Part shown: positions 3,229 through 14,194 of the stretch, one piece after another | Numbering within the stretch: position 1 is the first letter of the stretch | Layout: every line of letters starts with the position of its first letter | From: a virus | Length of the DNA stretch: 22,877 nucleotides | Virus record (IMG/VR): IMGVR_UViG_3300008261_002975 | Location: 1-22,877 of that record | Direction: 5' to 3' (one strand) | Program-made: the position numbers and the translations under genes | The notes under the pieces: generated by a model | Seen by the model: only the letters and a program-made list of their open reading frames with translations | The model's database searches: none | Told to the model about the DNA's origin: nothing

Positions 3229-4431
3229 ATGATAGACAAGAAACCCTTTAACACCCTACTTAAAACACTCAAAGACAACGGAAAATACCGCGTGTTCAAC
3301 GATATACTACGTGAACGCGGCAAGTTTCCAGAAGCTATTTGGTACGGGCCTTACAATATTAAAAACATTGTAAACTGGTGTAGCAACGACTACTTGGGCA
3401 TGGGACAGCATAAAGTAGTATTGGATGCCATGCACACGGCATTAGACATGACCGGAGCAGGTTCAGGCGGAACACGCAACATTGGCGGCACTAGTCACTA
3501 TCACGTGGCACTTGAACACGAACTTGCAATGCTACATAACAAAGCCAAAGCTCTACTGTTTAGCTCAGCATATGTGGCTAATGAGTGGACTTTGATTGCT
3601 TTGTCAAAGATCATTCCCAACATACACTTTGTTAGTGATAGCGAAAATCACAACAGTCTTGTTGTGGGCATGATCCACAGCCGGGCTCCCAAAACAGTTT
3701 TCGAACACAACAATCTACAACAACTCGAAGATGCACTGGCCGCGGTAACACTAACTGGTAATGTGCCTTGTGTTGTATTTGAATCAGTTTACTCGATGGA
3801 TGGCGATGTAGGACACATTAAAGAAATCTGCGATCTAGCAGACAAATATAATGCCATGACATATATTGATGAAGTTCATGCGGTAGGACTCTATGGACCC
3901 CACGGTGGTGGGAAAGTTGAAGAGCTTGGGCTACAATCCCGTATTGACATAGTCAATGGTACATTAGGGAAAGCCTATGGAGTCCAAGGTGGCTATATTG
4001 CTGCCGATGCTGAGGTTATCGACGCCATCCGTTCTGTAGCTGCTGGGTTTATCTTTACCACAAGCATGAGCCCTGTGAGCTGTTCTGGTGCATTGGCTGC
4101 TGTCAAGTACTTGAAGGATCATCCTGAGCTGCGTGACAAGCATCAAGAACGTGCTAGAAAGTTAAAGCATAGATTAACTGTAGCAGGCTTACCGGCTATG
4201 GAATGCTCAACTACACACATTGTGCCAATCCTTGTAGGCGATGCCAAGAAATGCAAAGCAATCAGCGATGAGCTGTTAAACGAACACAATATCTATATTC
4301 AGGCTATCAATAGTCCCACTGTTGCAGTAGGAACAGAACGGCTGCGTATTGCACCAACTCCGTTTCACGATGACGGTCTAATTGAAGATCTAATCACTGC
4401 GTTGAAAGCATCGTTCAATAAGTTTGATTAG
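3229..4431 (+). CDS. hemA: 5-aminolevulinate synthase (C4 pathway), PLP-dependent
   Basis: This is a full-length (400 aa) member of the alpha-oxoamine synthase family, class II fold, best matching 5-aminolevulinate synthase, which condenses glycine with succinyl-CoA as the first step of heme synthesis. Visible motifs are [12 protein letters not shown] near residue 50, [43 protein letters not shown] (D214 and H217 contact the cofactor), GTLGKAYG with the PLP lysine at K248, FIFTTSMSP, and a C-terminal [15 protein letters not shown] and SMDGD fit the synthase better than biotin or KBL-type relatives. The only plus-strand gene between minus-strand blocks, it overlaps the 3' end of hldD by 17 bp. 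No clear Shine-Dalgarno is visible. Confidence 0.93.
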
Positions 4432-5284
4432 TCTTGAGATATTTGATATATTCTTGAATACCTTGCCAGGCTTCGAAGAACTGAATAACATCTAATCCAG
4501 CATCGATCAACGCAGATGTATCGGCTTTAGTATCCAATTGATATTGTTCTTTTAAATCAGCAGGCATTGGTACGTATTCTTTCTCACCTGACCCGAACTC
4601 GTTAATTACGATGTTGGCTATGCTTTCAAAGTTTATGCTTTCTCCGGTACCAACATCGTATACACCTGGTTGATAATTATTGATAAAATGATACACAGTA
4701 CGAGCAACATCTTCTACGTATATAAAATCTCTGTAGTAACTAGAACTGTTTTCAAATATCTTAATTGTTCCAGTTTGTTGTAGTTGTTGATACCAATGAT
4801 AAACAGTACTAGCCATTCGATCTTTATGATATTCGTTTGGTCCGTAAACATTAAACAATCGTAGTATCACTCCGTCAGTAATTTCTTGTTCGCTTACTTG
4901 TTTACTAAATGCGTAGTGATTAAGTGGACCTTTTCCATTACCGTAAACTGCTGCACTACTGGTAAAGATAAATTTCTTTCCTTGCTCTCTACATAGGTCA
5001 TGCCATCGTCGAGTACTTGACACATTGGTGTTATAGATACTGGCCCAATCTCTTTCTAATGTGCTTGAGTTAGCACCGATATGTATTACACAATCAAAGT
5101 CACTGAGGTCACTGACAATTTCTTTAGTAGAATGCAGTCCTAGATATTGTTTGCCTATTAGATTCTTGTACTGATTTTCTGTAGGCAGGTCATCAAAGAG
5201 GTATACATCAGTAATACCTTGCTTGTTTAGGTACCCCAATACTACACTACCGATAAAGCCGCCGGCGCCTGTTAGGGCTATCAT
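4415..5284 (-). CDS. hldD: ADP-L-glycero-D-manno-heptose 6-epimerase-like NAD-dependent SDR
   Basis: This 289-residue extended SDR has the Rossmann motif GAGGFIG (residues 6-12) and a D31-D32 adenosine-binding acid. TSSAAVYG at 108-115 supplies the catalytic Ser, and YAFSK gives Y124 and K128. The second half follows E. coli HldD closely in outline: [66 protein letters not shown] and [12 protein letters not shown]. HldD converts ADP-D-glycero- to ADP-L-glycero-beta-D-manno-heptose. It is the last gene of the heptose operon and overlaps the kinase gene by 4 bp (ATGA). The preceding heptose genes make HldD more likely than a general GalE. Confidence 0.9.
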
Positions 5285-6039
5285 TTTATTTCCTCTAGTG
5301 TAGGAGCATAGTTTCCTAAATGCTGTACTGTCACAGCACTTGCTTTGATGGCAAATGTAATTGCAACATGCATATCTTTAGATTTTAGATATTGAAACGC
5401 CAGGGCTGCTAAGAATGTGTCGCCTGCACCACAAACATCTGCTACCTCAACAGTGCGAGCACCAAATGCAAAGTCTCCGTATACAACTCCTTGGTCACCA
5501 TAGGTAACAATTAGTCCCGACGGAACACCTGTTGGGAAACTTGTAGCACGGCTATGTTCAAGTTCGTTTATCTTAATAAAACAACCTTCTAGTCTTGCTA
5601 GATCTGTTTTCTTTGTGTCAACAAAAATAGGTCCGCTAAATTCTTTGCGTAGTTCTTCAATCAACTCGTAGCTTACTGTACCCTTGTTGTAGTCGCTAAC
5701 AACAATGGCATCGTACACGGTAGGTAGCTCTGAGTCAATGGTTATAGGATCTGATATAACATCTCTGTCGATGCGTACTATCTGTTGTTTACTACGTGTA
5801 TCTATTAGTCTAGTCTTGGTAGAGCTTTCGCCGTGCAAGAATGTTACTTCACATCCCAATGCTTCTAGATTCTTACGCACATTGCCGGCCATGCCATCTT
5901 TAACTATGTCGTACTTGGGTACGAACACTGGCACAGGTGCTTCTGGACTGATACGATCTACACTGCCATATTTGTAGACGTCGGTGCAATCATCCCCTAG
6001 TAATAATATGTTGAATTGTGTTTGTTGTTGAGTATCCAT
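5281..6039 (-). CDS. hldE1: D-glycero-beta-D-manno-heptose-7-phosphate kinase (HldE N-terminal domain type)
   Basis: This PfkB/ribokinase-family sugar kinase of 252 aa carries the heptokinase signature ISPEAPVPV (residues 30-38), NVRKNLEALGCEV, VVSDYNKGTVS, FVDTKKTDL, VTYGDQG and the anion-hole/catalytic motif ADVCGAGDTF, with D207 as probable base. It would phosphorylate heptose 7-phosphate at C1. In E. coli the kinase is fused to the adenylyltransferase as one HldE protein; here they are separate genes whose ends overlap by 50 bp. It is about 60 residues shorter than the E. coli kinase domain, with the loss mainly in the middle. The ATG at 6037-6039 is the only plausible start. Confidence 0.9.
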   Translation of the reverse strand: MDTQQQTQFNILLLGDDCTDVYKYGSVDRISPEAPVPVFVPKYDIVKDGMAGNVRKNLEALGCEVTFLHGESSTKTRLIDTRSKQQIVRIDRDVISDPITIDSELPTVYDAIVVSDYNKGTVSYELIEELRKEFSGPIFVDTKKTDLARLEGCFIKINELEHSRATSFPTGVPSGLIVTYGDQGVVYGDFAFGARTVEVADVCGAGDTFLAALAFQYLKSKDMHVAITFAIKASAVTVQHLGNYAPTLEEIK

Positions 6040-6391
6040 TTATTCTCTCAAAGTATTCTATACGTTTTGCGTATTCACTACCAATTACCGGCTTGCCACG
6101 CCAGTCGCTACCTACCATCATGACCGCAGGACGAAACTGCTTTACCAGCATAGCCAGTTCTTCATCGCTGTCAAATATCTGTACTTCGTTTACAGCTTTT
6201 AGATTAGACAGCATTGCTCTTCGATCGCCTGCATTATTGATAGGGCGAGTTGGCCCTTTTAATTTTGCCACTCGATCGTCGCTGTCAATTGCTACGATGA
6301 GATAATCACCGAAGCTCCGTGCTGTGTTTAACAACAGCACATGTCCAGGATGCAATATGTCAAAGGTACCGTTTACAAACACAGTTGTCAT
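5990..6391 (-). CDS. hldE2: D-glycero-beta-D-manno-heptose 1-phosphate adenylyltransferase (HldE C-terminal domain type)
   Basis: This small cytidylyltransferase-like nucleotidyltransferase (133 aa) has a nucleotide-binding motif GTFDILHPGH at residues 8-17, followed by VAIDSDDRVAKLKG, DRRAMLSNL, VMMVGSDWRGKPVIGSEYA (about 91-108) and a closing STTNTI (121-126), which corresponds to the ISTS/T region of the family. It transfers AMP from ATP to heptose 1-phosphate to give ADP-heptose. Glycerol-3-phosphate cytidylyltransferase is related, but the position between gmhB and the heptokinase decides the assignment. It overlaps gmhB by ATGA (4 bp) and the kinase gene by 50 bp. Confidence 0.9.
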   Translation of the reverse strand: MTTVFVNGTFDILHPGHVLLLNTARSFGDYLIVAIDSDDRVAKLKGPTRPINNAGDRRAMLSNLKAVNEVQIFDSDEELAMLVKQFRPAVMMVGSDWRGKPVIGSEYAKRIEYFERINGYSTTNTIQHIITRG

Positions 6392-7002
6392 GGCAGTGTT
6401 GCTACAAATGCAGCCAAGTTATCAAACACCAAAGTCTTTCGTTTTAGATCTTTGTGAGCGTAACGATTAAGTTCTTTTTCTGTTTCTAATCCATACCCAG
6501 TTCGAACCAAGACAGGTTTAGCACCCATATTGGCAGCAGCTTTTAAGTCTTTTATCTTGTCACCAACATAATAGCCTTCTTTGAATTTGATATCTTTGAT
6601 TTCTTTTTCGCAACGTTTGAACATGCCGGTATTGGGTTTGGCAAACGGATCTTCTTTTCGACTGCTGGCACTATAATAGATACCGTCAATACTAAAACAC
6701 CCTGCCTTGCCTAATAGATCTAGCATATGCTCATGTAGGGTATCAACATCTTGCTGAGTATACAGGCCTTTTTCGATACCACCTTGGTCCGTAATGATAA
6801 CAATTTTATGTCCTTTACGTCTAAGATCTGCAATAGCTTCTAAGCTACCTTCAATAGGATCAAAGTCGTCTATGCGGTGACAATAGGTTCCTAAGTCGCG
6901 ATTGATTACCCCGTCGCGATCTAAACCTACTACACATTTTGTGCGGAACTCTCCACCGCCCCAAACAATCTTAGGTTGGGCTTGATTCTGTTGTGGTTGC
7001 AC
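6388..7002 (-). CDS. gmhB: D-glycero-beta-D-manno-heptose-1,7-bisphosphate 7-phosphatase (GmhB-like HAD)
   Basis: This HAD-family phosphatase of 204 aa has motif I GLDRDGVINRD with D28 and D30, motif II around VIITDQGGI (about 68-76), a substrate lysine in AKPNTGMF (K122), and motif IV GYYVGDKIKDLKAA (D148, D152) followed by MGAKPVLVRTGYG. GmhB removes the 7-phosphate of heptose 1,7-bisphosphate between the kinase and adenylyltransferase steps. Unlike E. coli GmhB, the loop before KPxxGM has no cysteines (ASSRKEDPFAKP), so the usual zinc site appears absent. Its first 32 bp overlap the end of the cupin gene. The N-terminal 20 residues are Gln-rich and look like an extension. Confidence 0.9.
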   Translation of the reverse strand: MQPQQNQAQPKIVWGGGEFRTKCVVGLDRDGVINRDLGTYCHRIDDFDPIEGSLEAIADLRRKGHKIVIITDQGGIEKGLYTQQDVDTLHEHMLDLLGKAGCFSIDGIYYSASSRKEDPFAKPNTGMFKRCEKEIKDIKFKEGYYVGDKIKDLKAAANMGAKPVLVRTGYGLETEKELNRYAHKDLKRKTLVFDNLAAFVATLP

Positions 7003-8103: not shown

Positions 8104-8613
8104 ATGACAACATTAGTATTAAATGCCGATGCACAACCTGTTAGCATCTTGCCCTTAAGCATTGTAGATTGGCAAGAATCCATTCGCTATCTCGTATTGG
8201 ACAAAGTTTCTGTCATGGCTTGGTATGAAGATTGGGTCGTTCGTTCAGCACGTTGGGAAACTAGAGTGCCGGCTGTAATTATGCTCAAAGAATATCAAAA
8301 ACCCAAGCAACACGTTAAGTTAAGTAAGAGAAACATATTTTTACGTGACAGATACGAATGTCAGTATTGTGGCGCACACACAACAGACAGCGATGCCACA
8401 TTAGATCATGTGCTACCAATTAGTTTAGGTGGGAAGAGCGCCTGGACCAACTTGTCTACCGCTTGTAAACCTTGTAACTATCGCAAAGCAAACCAAACCA
8501 GAATGAAGCCAAAGCGTATGCCTTACAAGCCTGACTTTTGGGAATTGGTTGATAGCCGTAGACATCGAGGGTTTCATATAGCTCACCCTAGTTGGGAAGA
8601 CTATCTAGGATAG
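8104..8613 (+). CDS. HNH endonuclease
   Basis: This 169-residue protein has a C-terminal HNH domain: RNIFLRDRYECQYCG (zinc-ligand pair C86/C89), LDHVLPISLGG (catalytic D101-H102), WTNL (N116), and CKPC (C121/C124), then NYRKANQ. The N-terminal 70 residues (VLNADAQPVSILPLSIVDWQESIRYL...) are typical of HNH proteins common in phages and cyanobacteria, which nick or cut double-stranded DNA. It stands alone between divergent promoters and the palindromic promoter of the next operon. It could be a free-standing homing-type nuclease or act in packaging; the window does not decide this. Confidence 0.88.
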   Translation: MTTLVLNADAQPVSILPLSIVDWQESIRYLVLDKVSVMAWYEDWVVRSARWETRVPAVIMLKEYQKPKQHVKLSKRNIFLRDRYECQYCGAHTTDSDATLDHVLPISLGGKSAWTNLSTACKPCNYRKANQTRMKPKRMPYKPDFWELVDSRRHRGFHIAHPSWEDYLG

Positions 8614-8630
8614 CCTATCCAAAATATCAC

Positions 8631-8659
8631 TTGACAGGACCCGCGGGTCCTGTTATAAT
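8631..8659 (+). promoter_or_regulatory. Consensus sigma70 promoter of the ParB-like/HNH/PD-(D/E)XK operon
   Basis: TTGACA (8631-8636) and TATAAT (8654-8659) are perfect consensus hexamers with a 17-bp spacer, plus TG one base before the -10 (extended -10, 8652-8653 reading TGT-TATAAT). The start would be near 8666, giving a leader of about 45 nt before the ATG at 8712 with AAAGGA as ribosome binding site. The spacer is filled by a perfect palindrome, described separately. Confidence 0.88.
8634..8653. repeat. Perfect 20-bp palindrome in promoter spacer (operator candidate)
   Basis: ACAGGACCCGCGGGTCCTGT is its own reverse complement with no central gap. It begins inside the -35 hexamer and ends at the first base before TATAAT. 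Its GC-rich core stands out from the AT-rich surroundings. A dimeric repressor bound here would block RNA polymerase. No T-run follows, which argues against a terminator. The same 20-mer was not seen elsewhere in the window. Confidence 0.8.
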
Positions 8660-8711
8660 TTATGCATAGGGTAAGATAACGCCTTATACATTTCTAAGTT
8701 AAAGGAAAAAA

Positions 8712-9716
8712 ATGTCAAAATCAGATGAGTTAAAAATGCAGCCTTTTGACCCCAGTCAAGGTCGCAAAGATAAAAAAGTATCGTTGGTTCAAGTTTCTCG
8801 AATGGTGCAGAAACGAATTGGATCTACAAAATCAAACCCAAATTTTAAGTACCAAGATGTATTGCATTTTGCATGGGTACCTGCTGAGAAAGTTTATTTC
8901 AATTATGAACGACAGCGTTGGCCAGAACCCAAACATCAAAAGAAACTGCGCAATAAATGGAACATCAATTGTGTAACTCCATTGCAATGCCGTTATAGTG
9001 AAAAAGAAGATAGATATTATGGTGCAGATGGTCAGCAGCATAGTACCGAATGGATCAACCAATATAGCGAGGCCAGTATGGTGCCGGTCTTCTTTGTGAA
9101 AAGCGAAGATGAGAATGTTGAAAGCCAGATGTTGTTGGCCCTTAACAACGACAACGAGCCAATGGCAAAATTCTTTATTCATCAACAAGAAGTTATCATG
9201 GGTGTTGCGGAAGCAGTTGCCCTTGAAAAATGCATAGTAGATGCTGGTTGCGAAACAGCATACAAGAAACGATCAGCTGGTACAATTACTCACATTAGTG
9301 ATTTGTTTTTGGCTCGCGACAACTACGGACTAGAAGGCATAAGTGCTGTTCTTCCAAAGATGAGAACTTACTGGCCTACTGAACGCATCTACACAGCCAC
9401 AATGTTAGGATTCCTCAAAGTCCGAGAGTTAATGATCGATTCAAAGAATTACTCTGATGAGCTATTCGAAGATGTAATTTTCCAATGTTCGAACTTCTTT
9501 GAAAGCTCTGAACGGTTGCATTTAGACATCAAGGACGAGTTTGAAGCAGTCTATCCAACAAACTATAAAGGTATGGGAGTTCGTGAAAAAATTGCATCAG
9601 GAATCATTGATGCATACGAACAGTTAAGTGGCAAGGCCCTTGTTCCTAAACCCTTTGCAATCAACATGCCTCGTCTAACTGACTCAGTTGAAGATGAGGA
9701 ATTTGCAAATGGCTAA
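8712..9716 (+). CDS. ParB/sulfiredoxin-like nuclease-domain protein, 334 aa
   Basis: Residues of roughly 50-120 fit the ParB N-terminal/Srx-like fold: HFAWVPAEKVYFNYERQRWP, a probable basic helix PKHQKKLRNKW, then TPLQCRYSEKEDRYYGADGQQHS, where the GADGQQH strand-turn corresponds to the GxxR/D..GxHR nucleotide-binding region. MLLALNNDNEPMAKFF follows, also typical of ParB-like phage proteins. The remaining two thirds are helical and unassigned. ParB-fold proteins bind CTP or act as nucleases or DNA-binding regulators; which applies here is unknown. It is first in a three-gene operon with two nucleases; its stop overlaps the next start by 8 bp. Confidence 0.7.
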   Translation: MSKSDELKMQPFDPSQGRKDKKVSLVQVSRMVQKRIGSTKSNPNFKYQDVLHFAWVPAEKVYFNYERQRWPEPKHQKKLRNKWNINCVTPLQCRYSEKEDRYYGADGQQHSTEWINQYSEASMVPVFFVKSEDENVESQMLLALNNDNEPMAKFFIHQQEVIMGVAEAVALEKCIVDAGCETAYKKRSAGTITHISDLFLARDNYGLEGISAVLPKMRTYWPTERIYTATMLGFLKVRELMIDSKNYSDELFEDVIFQCSNFFESSERLHLDIKDEFEAVYPTNYKGMGVREKIASGIIDAYEQLSGKALVPKPFAINMPRLTDSVEDEEFANG

Positions 9717-10122
9717 ACTATATCCCAAATACGATCCAGGTACATATTATAGTCGAGAACTCTTTCGTACTGTGTGTGAGACCAATGACTTGAGACCAGT
9801 GTGGGCGTGGAAGAATGCACAGAAATGGAGTGTGGAGTACGAACCTTTTCTAGCCAAATGCGGAGAAACTTGTGAGTGTTGTGGAAGTCCTTTAAACTAT
9901 GGACTAGGCAAAAACAACGTAGACAAGTCAGACATTCATACACCTAGTACTGATCATATTGTTCCTAGAAGCCTAGACGGAACCAATGACATTGATAACT
10001 TGTGGATTATTTGTAACCGATGTAATTTGTTAAAAAACAATTCGACTCCCGAGGATATTCATAGATATCGTAAAATTTTAGAAACACTAGAAAGGATTGG
10101 ATCATATGATCAAAACAATTAA
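9709..10122 (+). CDS. HNH endonuclease, second gene of the ParB-like operon
   Basis: Starting at ATG 9709, which overlaps the ParB-like stop by 8 bp, this is a 137-aa protein. An upstream in-frame start at 9688 is possible but would overlap more. The HNH core is CGETCECCG (C51, C55, C57, C58), TDHIVPRSLDGTND (D82-H83), DNLWIICNRCN (N97, C102, C105) and a helical tail. It should be a zinc-stabilised metal-dependent DNA nuclease. The N-terminal 45 residues are Trp- and Tyr-rich and could bind DNA or a partner. Its close coupling to a ParB-like gene and a PD-(D/E)XK gene suggests a shared task. Confidence 0.87.
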   Translation: MAKLYPKYDPGTYYSRELFRTVCETNDLRPVWAWKNAQKWSVEYEPFLAKCGETCECCGSPLNYGLGKNNVDKSDIHTPSTDHIVPRSLDGTNDIDNLWIICNRCNLLKNNSTPEDIHRYRKILETLERIGSYDQNN

Positions 10123-10687
10123 AAACGGAATCGTAGTTGGAACTGAAATTCCAATTAAACAACTAAATGGAAACGTGGGTCGGTGGGCTGAAAAAGAATT
10201 AGCTAAAAACGGACACAATATCAGTAACGAACGAGGCGTCGACATGCCATTAGAAGGCATTGAAGTCAAGACTAGAAAGAATGATTCTACCAGTCCGCAC
10301 AGTGTAGGCTCGTCAAGAGTTGAGGACATCATAGACAATCCTTATGAACTATCGCACGTTCGAGAAAAACTACAGACACAGTATAGAATTCGTTATGATG
10401 ATAATGGTCAGGTTGTAACCAAAGAAGGACTATACGATTTCAGCGACCCATATTTGCAAGATCGATTCAAAGAAGCCTACGAAAACGGACGAAAACAAAT
10501 TGCAGCCGATGCGGTAAATGGGTTTCACCCTCCGTATGTTAAAGGTAACGAATGGGGTTATTGGGAACAAACAGGTCCGTATGGGTCGTACACATTCCGT
10601 ATTCCAAATAGTGCCATGAGGAAGATAGAAAAGATTGCAGAAAACAAACCATTATTTGATAAGTTTTTTGAAGTCCAAATCAATTGA
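10106..10687 (+). CDS. PD-(D/E)XK nuclease with MutH/Sau3AI-like active-site spacing
   Basis: ATG 10106 has AAAGGA nine bases upstream; the alternative TTG at 10097 is less likely. The 193-aa protein has GRWAEKELAK (E29, E31) followed by GVDMPLEGIEVKTR, giving D46, E53 and K55. That is D-x6-E-x-K, the spacing of the MutH/Sau3AI active site (D70, E77, K79 in MutH). This points to metal-dependent DNA cleavage, but overall similarity to either enzyme was not seen by eye. It overlaps the HNH gene by 17 bp and is the last gene of the ParB-like operon. No methyltransferase partner lies in this operon. The stop codon lies inside the next promoter's -35 box. Confidence 0.72.
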   Translation: MIKTIKNGIVVGTEIPIKQLNGNVGRWAEKELAKNGHNISNERGVDMPLEGIEVKTRKNDSTSPHSVGSSRVEDIIDNPYELSHVREKLQTQYRIRYDDNGQVVTKEGLYDFSDPYLQDRFKEAYENGRKQIAADAVNGFHPPYVKGNEWGYWEQTGPYGSYTFRIPNSAMRKIEKIAENKPLFDKFFEVQIN

Positions 10688-10712
10688 CAGTATCTCTATC
10701 TAACTGTATAAT
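10684..10712 (+). promoter_or_regulatory. Consensus sigma70 promoter for the GIY-YIG gene
   Basis: TTGACA (10684-10689) and TATAAT (10707-10712) with a 17-bp spacer. The TGA inside TTGACA is the stop codon of the upstream nuclease gene (10685-10687). A short ACAGT/ACTGT inverted repeat flanks the spacer. Confidence 0.85.
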
Positions 10713-10741: not shown

Positions 10742-11287
10742 ATGGCAAAGGTAAATCGCACTAAGTTTTATAAATTTGTAGGCGATGTGTTCGAGCACTA
10801 TGAACAGGATCGTGGTTCAAAAGAACGTACACATTCTGACAACGGATGGCGCCTGCGTAATAAAAAATATGGTGCGACTGCTACCTTTGCCAAACTACCC
10901 TTAACAGAAAGCCTAGAGCAACGTCCTTGTCCACTTGCAGAAGGACGGCCCGGTATCTATATTTTGCGTGATTCAGTATTCCCACATGGATTTTATATTG
11001 GCAAGGGCAAGGACATCTACGATCGCATTTGGAAACACGGTGTTAAACTAGATGGCACTGACAAATGGAACAAAGGGGTAGGTACCACAGAATACTTTGC
11101 CAAGTATCGTGAATTGCGTTTGGAAAAGGGATTGACCAACTTTGACGACGTTGAAGTTGCATTTTGGTTTACCGATAAATTTGATGCTCTTGAAGATCAG
11201 CTTATGGGTGCATACGAAGCCAAGTACGGAATGATTCCGTTTTGTAATAACACCGAAGAAAGCCTATTTCAAGTCTGGGATATTTAG
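10742..11287 (+). CDS. GIY-YIG endonuclease
   Basis: A 181-residue protein whose core is GIYIL (G71-I-Y73), FYIGKGKDIYDRIWKHG with Y85-I-G87 and the catalytic-type R95 and nearby H99, and a later acidic helix DALEDQLMGAYEAKYGMIPFCNN supplying the metal-binding Glu and the terminal Asn of the family. These enzymes cut DNA and often act as homing or repair nucleases. About 70 residues of unknown, basic sequence precede the domain and may target DNA. It has its own promoter upstream and a likely terminator just after its stop codon, so it is probably a monocistronic gene. Confidence 0.88.
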   Translation: MAKVNRTKFYKFVGDVFEHYEQDRGSKERTHSDNGWRLRNKKYGATATFAKLPLTESLEQRPCPLAEGRPGIYILRDSVFPHGFYIGKGKDIYDRIWKHGVKLDGTDKWNKGVGTTEYFAKYRELRLEKGLTNFDDVEVAFWFTDKFDALEDQLMGAYEAKYGMIPFCNNTEESLFQVWDI

Positions 11288-11345: not shown

Positions 11346-12248
11346 ATGACCGTACAGGCTCAAACACAAAAAATACTAATCACAAATAAAATAGGCAGAC
11401 AGATGTGGGTGTGGGATAGCGACAGCTTCTATACTCAACGACTCAAGGCAGGTCCTTATCAAAAGCAAAACCTATTGCACCTACGTGAGCTTTGCCCGAA
11501 TCCTCGCAAGATATTGGACATTGGCATGAACATTGGCATGAACACTTGGGAGTATGCTACATTTGCACAAGAGGTTCATGGCTTTGAACCTGTGCCTGCT
11601 ACATATCAAGTTGCGTTAGACAACATTGCCCTTAATCAACATCATCAAGACCCATCAACGGGTTGGTGGAAAGAAGCCAACGACACTTGGGCTAGTCTAG
11701 CTGTTGCCGGTAAGATTAATACATACAATGTAGCATTAGGTCCTACTTCAGGTACTGTAGAAATGCACATTAAAAAGAACGACGGACACAATCGCGTAAG
11801 CAACGACGGATACCAAACTGTTACCGGCAAGGCAGTTAAAGTAAACACAGGCTATCAGCGTGTGAGTGTTCCACAACTTACCTTAGACAGCTACAACTTT
11901 ACAGATGTAGATATTATCAAGATTGATGTAGAAGGGTATGAACTCAACGTGTTGGAAGGTGCTAGCAATACTATTGCCACCAATCGTCCTATTGTGCAAA
12001 TTGAGTGTGTTGAGACACAGCCGCGAGCATTTGGTAAAACAATTCAAGACCTAATGGATTTCTTTAATACTCGTAACTATGTTATTACAACTGCCGACGG
12101 CATAGTTCGCGGCAAAGATTGGTGTTATGTTAAGAAGATGATGGACCGTTTTATGATTCCAGCAGAGCGTACAGATCTATACGATCCAAGTAATGTAGAA
12201 GCTGTTGCTTCTTGTACTACATTTTCTGAGTTGTTTAGTGAGGAATAA
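11346..12248 (+). CDS. FkbM-family SAM-dependent methyltransferase
   Basis: This 300-aa protein has a class I methyltransferase fold of FkbM type: ILDIGMNIGMNTWEYA (SAM-binding glycine loop, near residue 57), VHGFEPVPATY (acidic ribose-binding residue), and DVDIIKIDVEGYELNVLEGA, the most typical FkbM block. FkbM proteins generally methylate hydroxyls on sugars or small molecules; the substrate here is unknown. AAGGAG lies 6 nt before the ATG. The next gene, a 2OG-Fe(II) oxygenase, follows after 8 bp, so the two could modify the same molecule. No clear promoter was seen between the terminator at 11308 and the start. Confidence 0.88.
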   Translation: MTVQAQTQKILITNKIGRQMWVWDSDSFYTQRLKAGPYQKQNLLHLRELCPNPRKILDIGMNIGMNTWEYATFAQEVHGFEPVPATYQVALDNIALNQHHQDPSTGWWKEANDTWASLAVAGKINTYNVALGPTSGTVEMHIKKNDGHNRVSNDGYQTVTGKAVKVNTGYQRVSVPQLTLDSYNFTDVDIIKIDVEGYELNVLEGASNTIATNRPIVQIECVETQPRAFGKTIQDLMDFFNTRNYVITTADGIVRGKDWCYVKKMMDRFMIPAERTDLYDPSNVEAVASCTTFSELFSEE

Positions 12249-12874: not shown

Positions 12875-14194
12875 GTGCGTACACAACCAGAAGTTATTAT
12901 TCAACAATTAGAAGCAGACAATAGCCGATTGGCTAAAGAAGCTATTTTGGAAACTGCCATGAAAGAAGATCTCACAGAGTTCTTTGAAGGCGTTGGCATG
13001 TGTTTAGACAAGCTCTATACATTTGGTGTCAAGCAAGTACCAACTAAAGAAGAAGATAATGGACAGGGTCTGACCTGGGATAACTTTAAGTTGTTGGCTC
13101 AGTCGTTGTATCGTAGAGAGCTCACGGGTCATGCCGCTCGTGATGCTATTCAATTGGCAATGGGTGTGGCTTCTAAACAACAGTGGAACGATTTCTATCG
13201 TCGTATTCTTATTAAAGATTTACGCTGTGGCGTTAGCGAAAAGACTGTAAACACAGTTGCTAAGAAAACAGGCAAGGATGTCTATAAGGTTCCTGTGTTT
13301 GAATGCATGTTGGCACACGATTCTGCCAATCACGAAAAGAAAGTTAAAGGCAAAAAGCTCTTAGAACATAAACTAGATGGTGTTCGTTGCCTAACTGTTA
13401 TCGATTACGAAAGCCGCACAGTTGTGCAGTATACTCGTAATGGTAAAGTACTGGAAAACTTTGGACACATTACTAAGGCTTTAGAAGACAATCTAGATAA
13501 CTTTGGACGTAGCTATATTTTGGACGGTGAGATCATGTCGGGTTCATTCCAGGACTTGATGAAACAGGTACATCGCAAGAGCAACGTAGCTGCCACAGAT
13601 GCGGTATTACATTTGTTTGATATCTTGCCTTTGAGCGAGTTTAAGTCAGGCGAGAGTGTAATGGGACAGCGTCGTCGTAGTAATATGCTAAAGACATTTG
13701 CAAACATATTTGCTGATACAGGCTGTATCGAATTGGTTCCTCAAGTCGAAGTGGATTTAGATACCTTGGTAGGTGAAATTGAATTTAAAGAGTTTAACAA
13801 GAAGGCCATTGCGTCAGGATTTGAAGGCGTAATGTTAAAGAGCATTGATGCTAGCTATGTATGTAAACGTGATACTGCATGGTTAAAGCTCAAACCATTT
13901 ATCGAAGTATCATTGGAGATTAAAGATGTTGAAGAAGGTACTGGTCGCAACGAAGGACGTCTTGGTGCTGTTATCTGTGAAGGTATTGATGATGGTAAGA
14001 CAATTAGAGTTAACGTGGGTTCAGGTTTTACTGATGACGACCGTGATAGTTATTGGCGGGAACGTGCTGACATCATTGGTCATGTGGTCGAAGTGCGAGC
14101 CGATGCTGTCACTCAAAACCAAGACGGAACGTACAGCTTGCGATTTCCCAGGTTTCTCAAATTTAGAGGATTTGCTAGGGGAGAAAAGGTCTAA
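12875..14194 (+). CDS. ATP-dependent DNA ligase, T4 gp30-like
   Basis: The 439-aa protein has all the expected nucleotidyltransferase motifs: motif I EHKLDGVR with the AMP-accepting lysine K166 (T4 ligase K159), YILDGEIM (motif III), SGFEGVMLK (motif IV) and AWLKLKP (motif V). An OB-fold follows, containing GRLGAVICEG and IRVNVGSGFTDDDR. The N-terminal 150 residues are the helical DNA-binding domain (LRCGVSEKTVNTV). It seals nicks using ATP during phage replication. The start is a GTG at 12875 with AGGAG five bases upstream. TAATG joins it to the next gene. Confidence 0.95.
   Translation: MRTQPEVIIQQLEADNSRLAKEAILETAMKEDLTEFFEGVGMCLDKLYTFGVKQVPTKEEDNGQGLTWDNFKLLAQSLYRRELTGHAARDAIQLAMGVASKQQWNDFYRRILIKDLRCGVSEKTVNTVAKKTGKDVYKVPVFECMLAHDSANHEKKVKGKKLLEHKLDGVRCLTVIDYESRTVVQYTRNGKVLENFGHITKALEDNLDNFGRSYILDGEIMSGSFQDLMKQVHRKSNVAATDAVLHLFDILPLSEFKSGESVMGQRRRSNMLKTFANIFADTGCIELVPQVEVDLDTLVGEIEFKEFNKKAIASGFEGVMLKSIDASYVCKRDTAWLKLKPFIEVSLEIKDVEEGTGRNEGRLGAVICEGIDDGKTIRVNVGSGFTDDDRDSYWRERADIIGHVVEVRADAVTQNQDGTYSLRFPRFLKFRGFARGEKV

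What the first reader, a model, noticed from the sequence alone, without database searches (positions are those of the whole stretch)
8631..10687. ParB-like / HNH / MutH-spaced nuclease operon behind a palindrome-filled promoter
Seen: a consensus promoter leading to a ParB-fold protein, an HNH nuclease and a D-x6-E-x-K nuclease, each overlapping the next. Inference: two different nucleases with a ParB-like DNA or nucleotide binder could form one DNA-targeting complex, for example to degrade host or rival phage DNA with the ParB-like protein marking sites. No methyltransferase partner exists, so self-protection would need DNA modification or sequence avoidance. I do not know this gene trio as a described system.
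Basis: partly seen in the sequence, partly recalled or inferred. Interest (0 to 1): 0.72.

Follow-up and report, generated by a model that had tools for sequence, protein, structure and literature searches.

The report
Swappable phage ParB–nuclease cassette with MutH
This phage carries a mobile three-gene unit, made of a ParB-type nucleotide-binding protein, a small HNH DNA-cutting enzyme and a relative of the repair nuclease MutH, that sits where related phages keep restriction-modification genes and is therefore probably a DNA weapon against other DNA in the infected cell, but this has not been tested in the laboratory.

Summary
A perfect sigma-70 promoter (8631-8659) drives three overlapping genes: ParB/sulfiredoxin-fold protein (8712-9716), HNH nuclease (9709-10122) and MutH/Sau3AI-fold nuclease (10106-10687). 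All 43 ParB clusters (95% identity) found in uncultured phages have a small nuclease coupled to them: HNH in 35 (one fused), GIY-YIG-like in 8 (weaker assignment). The MutH-like gene is optional (7 of 43), but every copy found sits in a ParB-nuclease operon, in four ParB lineages; twice it stayed while ParB and its nuclease were replaced together. Window and a relative share the cassette at 93-96% protein identity although flanking genes are 70-77%; the exchanged block ends at its two promoters. The slot (clpP-HNH gene / DNA ligase) is empty or holds restriction-modification-like pairs in relatives, and four ParB clusters have an adjacent DNA methyltransferase. The promoter palindrome is a terminator-like hairpin of PeSL type. 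A second, covarying RNA hairpin (8666-8687) marks these operon leaders only. Best reading: a mobile restriction-like module, GmrSD-like in logic but not a member of that family. Targets, nucleotide use and self-protection are untested. No relative was found in cultured phages or bacterial genomes.

The parts
8631..8659 (+). Consensus sigma-70 promoter TTGACA-17-TATAAT of the operon; left edge of the exchanged block
   Evidence: 12/12 match; window/L002 identity rises from about 0.5-0.6 to above 0.9 exactly here
8634..8653 (.). 20-bp perfect palindrome / terminator-like hairpin inside the promoter spacer (PeSL-type composite element)
   Evidence: same ACAGGAYC-N4-GRTCCTGT element before ParB in L002, L024, L027, L061, L062, L066 and before a restriction-modification gene in L083
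8666..8687 (+). Leader RNA hairpin with covarying stem and conserved 8-nt purine-rich loop (AAGATAAC here)
   Evidence: 6 of 7 pairs with compensatory changes in 9 sequences; strong model hits only in ParB leaders in about 1.06 Mb searched; no Rfam match
8712..9716 (+). ParB/sulfiredoxin-fold protein, 334 aa, motifs RQR (67-69), DGQQH (106-110), N145; C-terminal helical domain
   Evidence: no Pfam, PHROG or PADLOC hit
9709..10122 (+). HNH endonuclease, 137 aa, conserved D82-H83 and N97, cysteines C55/C58/C102/C105; coupled to ParB
   Evidence: PF01844 E 2.3e-8; alignment A3
10106..10687 (+). MutH/Sau3AI-like nuclease, 193 aa, D46-x6-E53-x-K55 and K88 (MutH D70, E77, K79, K116)
10684..10712 (+). 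Next consensus promoter; right edge of the exchanged block (TTGACA overlaps the MutH-like stop codon)
8104..8613 (+). Upstream HNH protein (HNH169): stable flank of the slot, not part of the cassette
   Evidence: PF14279 E 7e-15, phrog_16726; flanks empty, restriction-modification and ParB slots alike
10742..11287 (+). GIY-YIG-like protein under its own promoter; probably a neighbouring module
   Evidence: PF01541 E 0.003, below cut-off
11346..12248 (+). FkbM-family methyltransferase; homologues recur near ParB cassettes in L062, L013, L093, L095; possible accessory
12875..14194 (+). ATP-dependent DNA ligase: right flank of the slot in this phage group
   Evidence: phrog_114 E 1e-91

Best explanation
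The operon is one variant of a mobile, restriction-like DNA-targeting module of T4-type phages. A ParB/Srx-fold protein with the QR / DGQxH / N motif set binds a nucleotide and probably DNA and controls a small HNH nuclease (GIY-YIG-like in other lineages) encoded by the next, overlapping gene; a MutH/Sau3AI-type nuclease is an optional second cutter. I think it most likely cuts competing DNA (co-infecting phage or other non-self DNA) during infection, in the functional niche that restriction-modification systems fill in sister phages. Shown: operon, predicted folds, coupling of ParB and nuclease, modular exchange, alternative occupancy of the slot by methyltransferase-containing pairs. Inferred: nucleotide gating, complex formation, choice of target, how the phage's own DNA is spared.
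For: All 43 ParB clusters have a small nuclease coupled to them, one as a ParB-HNH fusion. ParB and the MutH-like protein have the predicted folds. The three motif positions described for GmrS and DGQHR proteins (PMC4619093) line up in nearly all clusters. Contigs found with the MutH-like query alone (L018, L019, L061, L062) proved to carry ParB and a nuclease. MutH is retained at 78% and 87% identity while ParB is 24-25%. Cassette exchange is bounded by promoters. The same slot is empty in L102/L103 or holds N6/N4 methyltransferase pairs, and phages with those occupants show no ParB of this family in their contigs. DNA methyltransferase genes adjoin ParB in L047, L098, L105, L108.
Against: No biochemical data. 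Most cassette-bearing long contigs (up to 329 kb) lack a D12 or above-cut-off N6/N4 DNA methyltransferase, so self-protection is unexplained. GATC, the MutH/Sau3AI site, is not avoided in the window (104 seen, 97 expected). HNH and GIY-YIG nucleases are also typical of homing elements.
Confidence: 0.5

Rival explanations
1. Homing-type selfish cassette: the HNH or GIY-YIG nuclease cuts cassette-free rivals so that repair copies the cassette in; ParB helps target or limits cutting, and self DNA is safe because the site is occupied.
For: HNH and GIY-YIG are the usual phage homing nucleases (general knowledge); extra HNH genes have entered this operon in L006 and L008 but not in closely related L015 and L007; cassette-free slots exist (L102, L103); the cassette moves horizontally.
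Against: ParB-HNH relatives sit in different genomic settings (near groES/groEL, rubrerythrin, ligase), so there is no single cognate site; a 330-aa ParB partner, an optional MutH and adjacent DNA methyltransferases are not features of free-standing homing genes; block ends coincide with shared promoters, which ordinary recombination explains.
Confidence: 0.2
2. Host-chromosome degradation: the nucleases break down host DNA for nucleotides, with ParB restricting them to host DNA.
For: T4-type phages are known to degrade host DNA (general knowledge); T4-type gp23 is present in two related records; the promoter is of host sigma-70 type, which suits early expression.
Against: A core takeover function should not be empty or replaced by restriction-modification pairs in sister phages; rapid swapping with 24-25% ParB identity fits a conflict gene better.
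Confidence: 0.15
3. Regulatory or replication module: ParB is a nucleotide switch acting in phage DNA replication, packaging or transcription, with the HNH protein as a structural or packaging nuclease.
For: ParB-CTPase-fold proteins have very varied roles and nucleotide preferences (PMC12704722); HNH proteins also serve in packaging (general knowledge).
Against: Absent from many close relatives and replaced by methyltransferase-containing pairs; MutH-like and DNA methyltransferase neighbours point to DNA conflict.
Confidence: 0.12

Closest known systems
GmrSD / BrxU / SspE type IV restriction (DUF262 ParB/Srx-fold NTPase + DUF1524 HNH)
   Same: ParB/Srx-fold protein with a DGQQ motif working beside an HNH nuclease, as two genes or one fusion; set among restriction genes
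   Different: No DUF262 or DUF1524 match; HNH is PF01844-type; DGQQH instead of DGQQR in this lineage; the nuclease class changes to GIY-YIG-like in other lineages; MutH add-on; phage-borne; structural match to SspE and BrxU is negligible (ranks 39 and 47)
DndB / DGQHR proteins
   Same: ParB fold, motif DGQHR (DAQHR in L018-type, EGQQR in L095); a DndB-like protein binds ATP/GTP (PMC12704722)
   Different: No dnd or ssp genes noticed in the cassettes; always coupled to a nuclease
DUF6551 (PF20188) phage ParB-fold proteins
   Same: L062 relative hits PF20188 exactly at its cut-off; phage DUF6551 proteins bind CTP or ATP (PMC12704722)
   Different: The window protein itself has no hit; nuclease coupling is not described in the passages read
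MutH / Sau3AI nucleases
   Same: Fold, D-x6-E-x-K spacing, K116 equivalent, P185 equivalent
   Different: 193 aa, no Pfam hit; MutH R184 is not matched at the same alignment column; no MutL seen; GATC not avoided
PeSL promoter-terminator elements of T4-type phages
   Same: Promoter fused with a stem-loop, at module borders where genes are shuffled
   Different: Here it precedes a ParB-nuclease operon in uncultured phages; identity rests on form and position

Membership tests
ParB/sulfiredoxin fold superfamily | ParB-like N-terminal fold | tested here: met
   Model pLDDT 90; best PDB hits ParB/Noc (prob 0.97-0.99) and sulfiredoxin (0.96), best E 5.5e-3; BFVD 'ParB/Sulfiredoxin' phage protein E 3.7e-11
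ParABS partition system | ParA partner and parS sites | not tested
   No ParA-like neighbour noticed in the cassettes, but no ParA profile or parS search was run
GmrSD type IV restriction | GmrS: DUF262 (PF03235) domain | tested here: not met
   No Pfam hit at E<=1
GmrSD type IV restriction | DGQQR motif with QR pair and FxxxN | tested here: inconclusive
   RQR, DGQQH and LALN(N/T)D in the window family; R of DGQQR replaced by H; EGQQR/DAQHR in other lineages
GmrSD type IV restriction | GmrD: DUF1524 HNH domain | tested here: not met
   HNH is PF01844/PF14279
GmrSD type IV restriction | NTP-stimulated cleavage of modified DNA | not testable with these tools
   Needs purified proteins
MutH/Sau3AI nucleases | MutH fold | tested here: met
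   Best 8 PDB hits are MutH or Sau3AI, best E 6.7e-4, prob 1.00; the next hit has prob 0.14; model of moderate confidence (pLDDT 74)
MutH/Sau3AI nucleases | Catalytic D70, E77, K79, K116 | tested here: met
   All four invariant in the alignment with E. coli MutH; E56 matched in all but L023
MutH/Sau3AI nucleases | Match to the family sequence profile | tested here: not met
   No Pfam hit at E<=1; hhalign with E. coli MutH alone E 0.018, probability 2.5%
MutH/Sau3AI nucleases | GATC specificity | not testable with these tools
   GATC not depleted in the window, which neither proves nor excludes it
Type II restriction-modification system | Cognate DNA methyltransferase | tested here: not met
   No N6_N4 methyltransferase in the window record and none noticed among its ORFs; D12 profile not run on the window itself; adjacent methyltransferase in 4 of 43 relatives
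PeSL promoter-terminator elements | Promoter overlapping a stem-loop at the border of an exchanged module | tested here: met
   definition known only through citing text (PMC4503421), original papers not held
PeSL promoter-terminator elements | T4-type phage genome | tested here: inconclusive
   Gp23 profile hits in two related records, 329 kb and 199 kb; not testable in the window fragment

The most novel reading that the evidence does not exclude
A new class of phage-borne, mostly methyltransferase-free restriction/exclusion system: a ParB-fold nucleotide switch that accepts interchangeable HNH or GIY-YIG nucleases plus an optional MutH-type cutter, with expression controlled through a dedicated leader RNA hairpin, exchanged between T4-type phages as promoter-bounded cassettes in a restriction hotspot.
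Probability: 0.3. Interest if true: 0.78.

Novelty: new variant of a known kind. Interest (0 to 1): 0.6.

Why it matters
If true, lytic T4-type phages carry exchangeable DNA-cutting systems much as bacteria carry defence islands, and the ParB nucleotide switch has been reused to control unrelated nucleases. That makes a concrete question testable: how can a nuclease module without a methyltransferase tell self from foreign DNA? It also gives a likely function to a set of ParB-fold and MutH-like phage proteins that no family library recognises.

Tried and rejected
Palindrome as a repressor operator: not favoured, because the same kind of hairpin precedes a restriction-modification gene (L083) and another gene (L086), and its loop varies. 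GATC avoidance as proof of MutH-type cutting: not found. Obligate three-gene system: rejected, MutH-like in 7 of 43 clusters. Relatives in cultured phages: none by tblastn with six ParB queries or MutH-like; bacterial genomes: none (a pattern-based scan that can miss distant relatives); plasmids: none for MutH-like. Defence library PADLOC: only weak generic HNH hits. PDB sequence search with ParB and MutH profiles: nothing credible. Papers describing such a system: none found. Structure prediction of the ParB-HNH complex could not be run.

Full report
OBSERVATION. The promoter TTGACA-17-TATAAT (8631-8659) is a 12/12 match and a second 12/12 promoter follows the operon at 10684-10712. The spacer holds a 20-bp perfect palindrome, the only such site in the window, which as RNA forms a hairpin of -16.6 kcal/mol, z -3.3, and scores as a terminator. 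ParB-like 8712-9716, HNH 9709-10122 and MutH-like 10106-10687 overlap by 8 and 17 nt. The HNH gene is clear by sequence (PF01844, E 2.3e-8); the other two have no Pfam, PHROG or PADLOC match.

FOLDS. With 28 relatives the ParB-like protein gives a model of pLDDT 90. Its best PDB matches are ParB and Noc (E 5.5e-3, prob 0.99), then sulfiredoxin and PadC; among viral models the best is a phage 'ParB/Sulfiredoxin' protein (E 3.7e-11), followed by mostly unnamed proteins including several from marine cyanophages. The MutH-like model is of moderate quality (pLDDT 74, 7 sequences), yet its best eight PDB matches are all MutH or Sau3AI and the ninth falls to prob 0.14. Aligned with E. coli MutH, residues D70, E77, K79 and K116 are invariant; profile comparison with MutH alone is weak (E 0.018).

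ASSOCIATION. ParB searches in IMG/VR gave 17 and then 42 loci; a ligase search of the same genomic slot plus an iterative profile extended this to 98 ORFs in 43 clusters at 95% identity. Every cluster has a small nuclease as the next gene, or one gene further on when another gene is inserted, usually overlapping. In 35 it is HNH, and in L031 ParB and HNH are one 462-aa protein. In 8 it is a GIY-YIG/T5orf172-like protein; this assignment is weaker, resting on sub-threshold hits (PF10544 E 0.001-0.04, PF13455 E 0.004), a shared G-I...R...Y...E...E-W pattern and profile comparisons. The MutH-like gene is in 7 clusters; all eight loci that a MutH search returns are ParB-nuclease operons, four of them found by the MutH query alone. 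The ParB tree puts MutH in four separate ParB lineages.

MODULARITY. Window and L018 share MutH at 78% but ParB at 24% and HNH at 31%; L061 and L062 share MutH at 87% but ParB at 25% and nuclease at 23%. So ParB and its nuclease are exchanged as one unit while MutH can stay. Window and L002 share ParB, HNH and MutH at 94, 93 and 96% (dS 1.0, 0.8, 0.25), whereas flanking HNH169 and ligase are 70% and 77% (dS saturated and 2.4), with dN/dS about 0.03-0.09 in the cassette. The identity step lies at the promoter on the left and at the end of MutH/next promoter on the right.

SLOT. Between clpP-HNH169 and DNA ligase, relatives have nothing (L102, L103), ParB cassettes, or gene pairs containing an N6/N4 DNA methyltransferase (L082, L083, L087, L097, L099, L100; Pfam E 1e-38 to 1e-40 for the three tested). 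The partner genes of these methyltransferases that were tested have no Pfam match, so 'restriction-modification pair' is an inference from the arrangement. Contigs with other occupants show no ParB of the window type. Four ParB clusters have a DNA methyltransferase next to them: L105 (D12, E 4e-21), L047, L098 and L108 (one family, weaker scores). Most long ParB-bearing contigs lack one.

REGULATION. The promoter-hairpin form ACAGGAYC-N4-GRTCCTGT recurs before several ParB operons and before a restriction-modification gene in L083. This is the layout of PeSL elements, promoter-terminator motifs reported to mediate shuffling in T4-like phages (as cited in PMC4503421). T4-type gp23 is found in two related records. 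A second hairpin at the 5' end of the transcript (8666-8687) has 6 of 7 pairs with compensatory changes and a conserved 8-nt loop in nine relatives. I picked and trimmed these sequences by eye for pairing, so the counts lean towards the structure; but the model finds strong hits only in ParB leaders in 1.06 Mb. Changing arms with kept pairing and a kept loop argue for an RNA element rather than a DNA operator. Another subgroup has a different leader hairpin.

MECHANISM. GmrS and DGQHR proteins are described as sharing a QR pair, DGQQR/DGQHR and FxxxN (PMC4619093). The same three positions are kept in nearly all 43 clusters. ParB-fold proteins bind CTP, ATP or GTP, and phage DUF6551 proteins, to which L062 belongs marginally, bind CTP or ATP (PMC12704722). 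I therefore propose a nucleotide-gated, ParB-controlled nuclease acting on non-self DNA. Nothing here shows activity, specificity or self-protection. GATC is not avoided, so a Sau3AI-like specificity would need protection or control.

NOVELTY. It works like a split GmrSD but fails that family's domain tests; I file it as a new variant of a known kind (ParB/Srx-fold plus nuclease restriction), phage-borne, with interchangeable nucleases. It has no detectable relatives in 50,697 phage records of INPHARED by tblastn.

Noticed in passing
window 4415-7002: Apparent ADP-heptose pathway in a phage: HldD-type epimerase (TIGR02197 E 2e-70), split HldE kinase and adenylyltransferase, GmhB phosphatase; all below NCBIfam equivalog cut-offs.
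   Followed up: partly
window 3229-4431: 5-aminolevulinate synthase gene, above the NCBIfam cut-off (TIGR01821 E 4e-168), unusual in a phage.
   Followed up: no
window 11346-12248; L062, L013, L093, L095: FkbM-family methyltransferase recurs within about 1.6 kb of ParB cassettes and in no ParB-free locus fetched; possible unrecognised modification partner.
   Followed up: partly
L029: TGCA is nearly absent (3 seen, 50 expected, z -10) in a locus whose cassette is followed by a 384-aa protein of unknown family; possible specificity clue.
   Followed up: no
L031: AGCT strongly depleted (4 seen, 35 expected).
   Followed up: no
L006 9002-9487; L008 3817-4443: Extra HNH-like genes inserted between ParB and its HNH, absent from closely related L015 and L007: look like recent homing-gene insertions.
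   Followed up: partly
L079 6201-6947; L090 5793-6704; L092 5394-6911; L087 4190-5638; L013 9354-10271; L066 5089-5802: Unnamed slot or cassette proteins, several with D-x(n)-E-x-K-like or SVKxxxG motifs, no Pfam match: candidate unrecognised restriction enzymes.
   Followed up: no
L006, L007, L009, L011, L012 leaders: A second type of leader hairpin with a nested inner stem (for example ATGTTAG-GGC-GAAT-GCC-AAAA-CTAACAT) in another ParB subgroup.
   Followed up: partly
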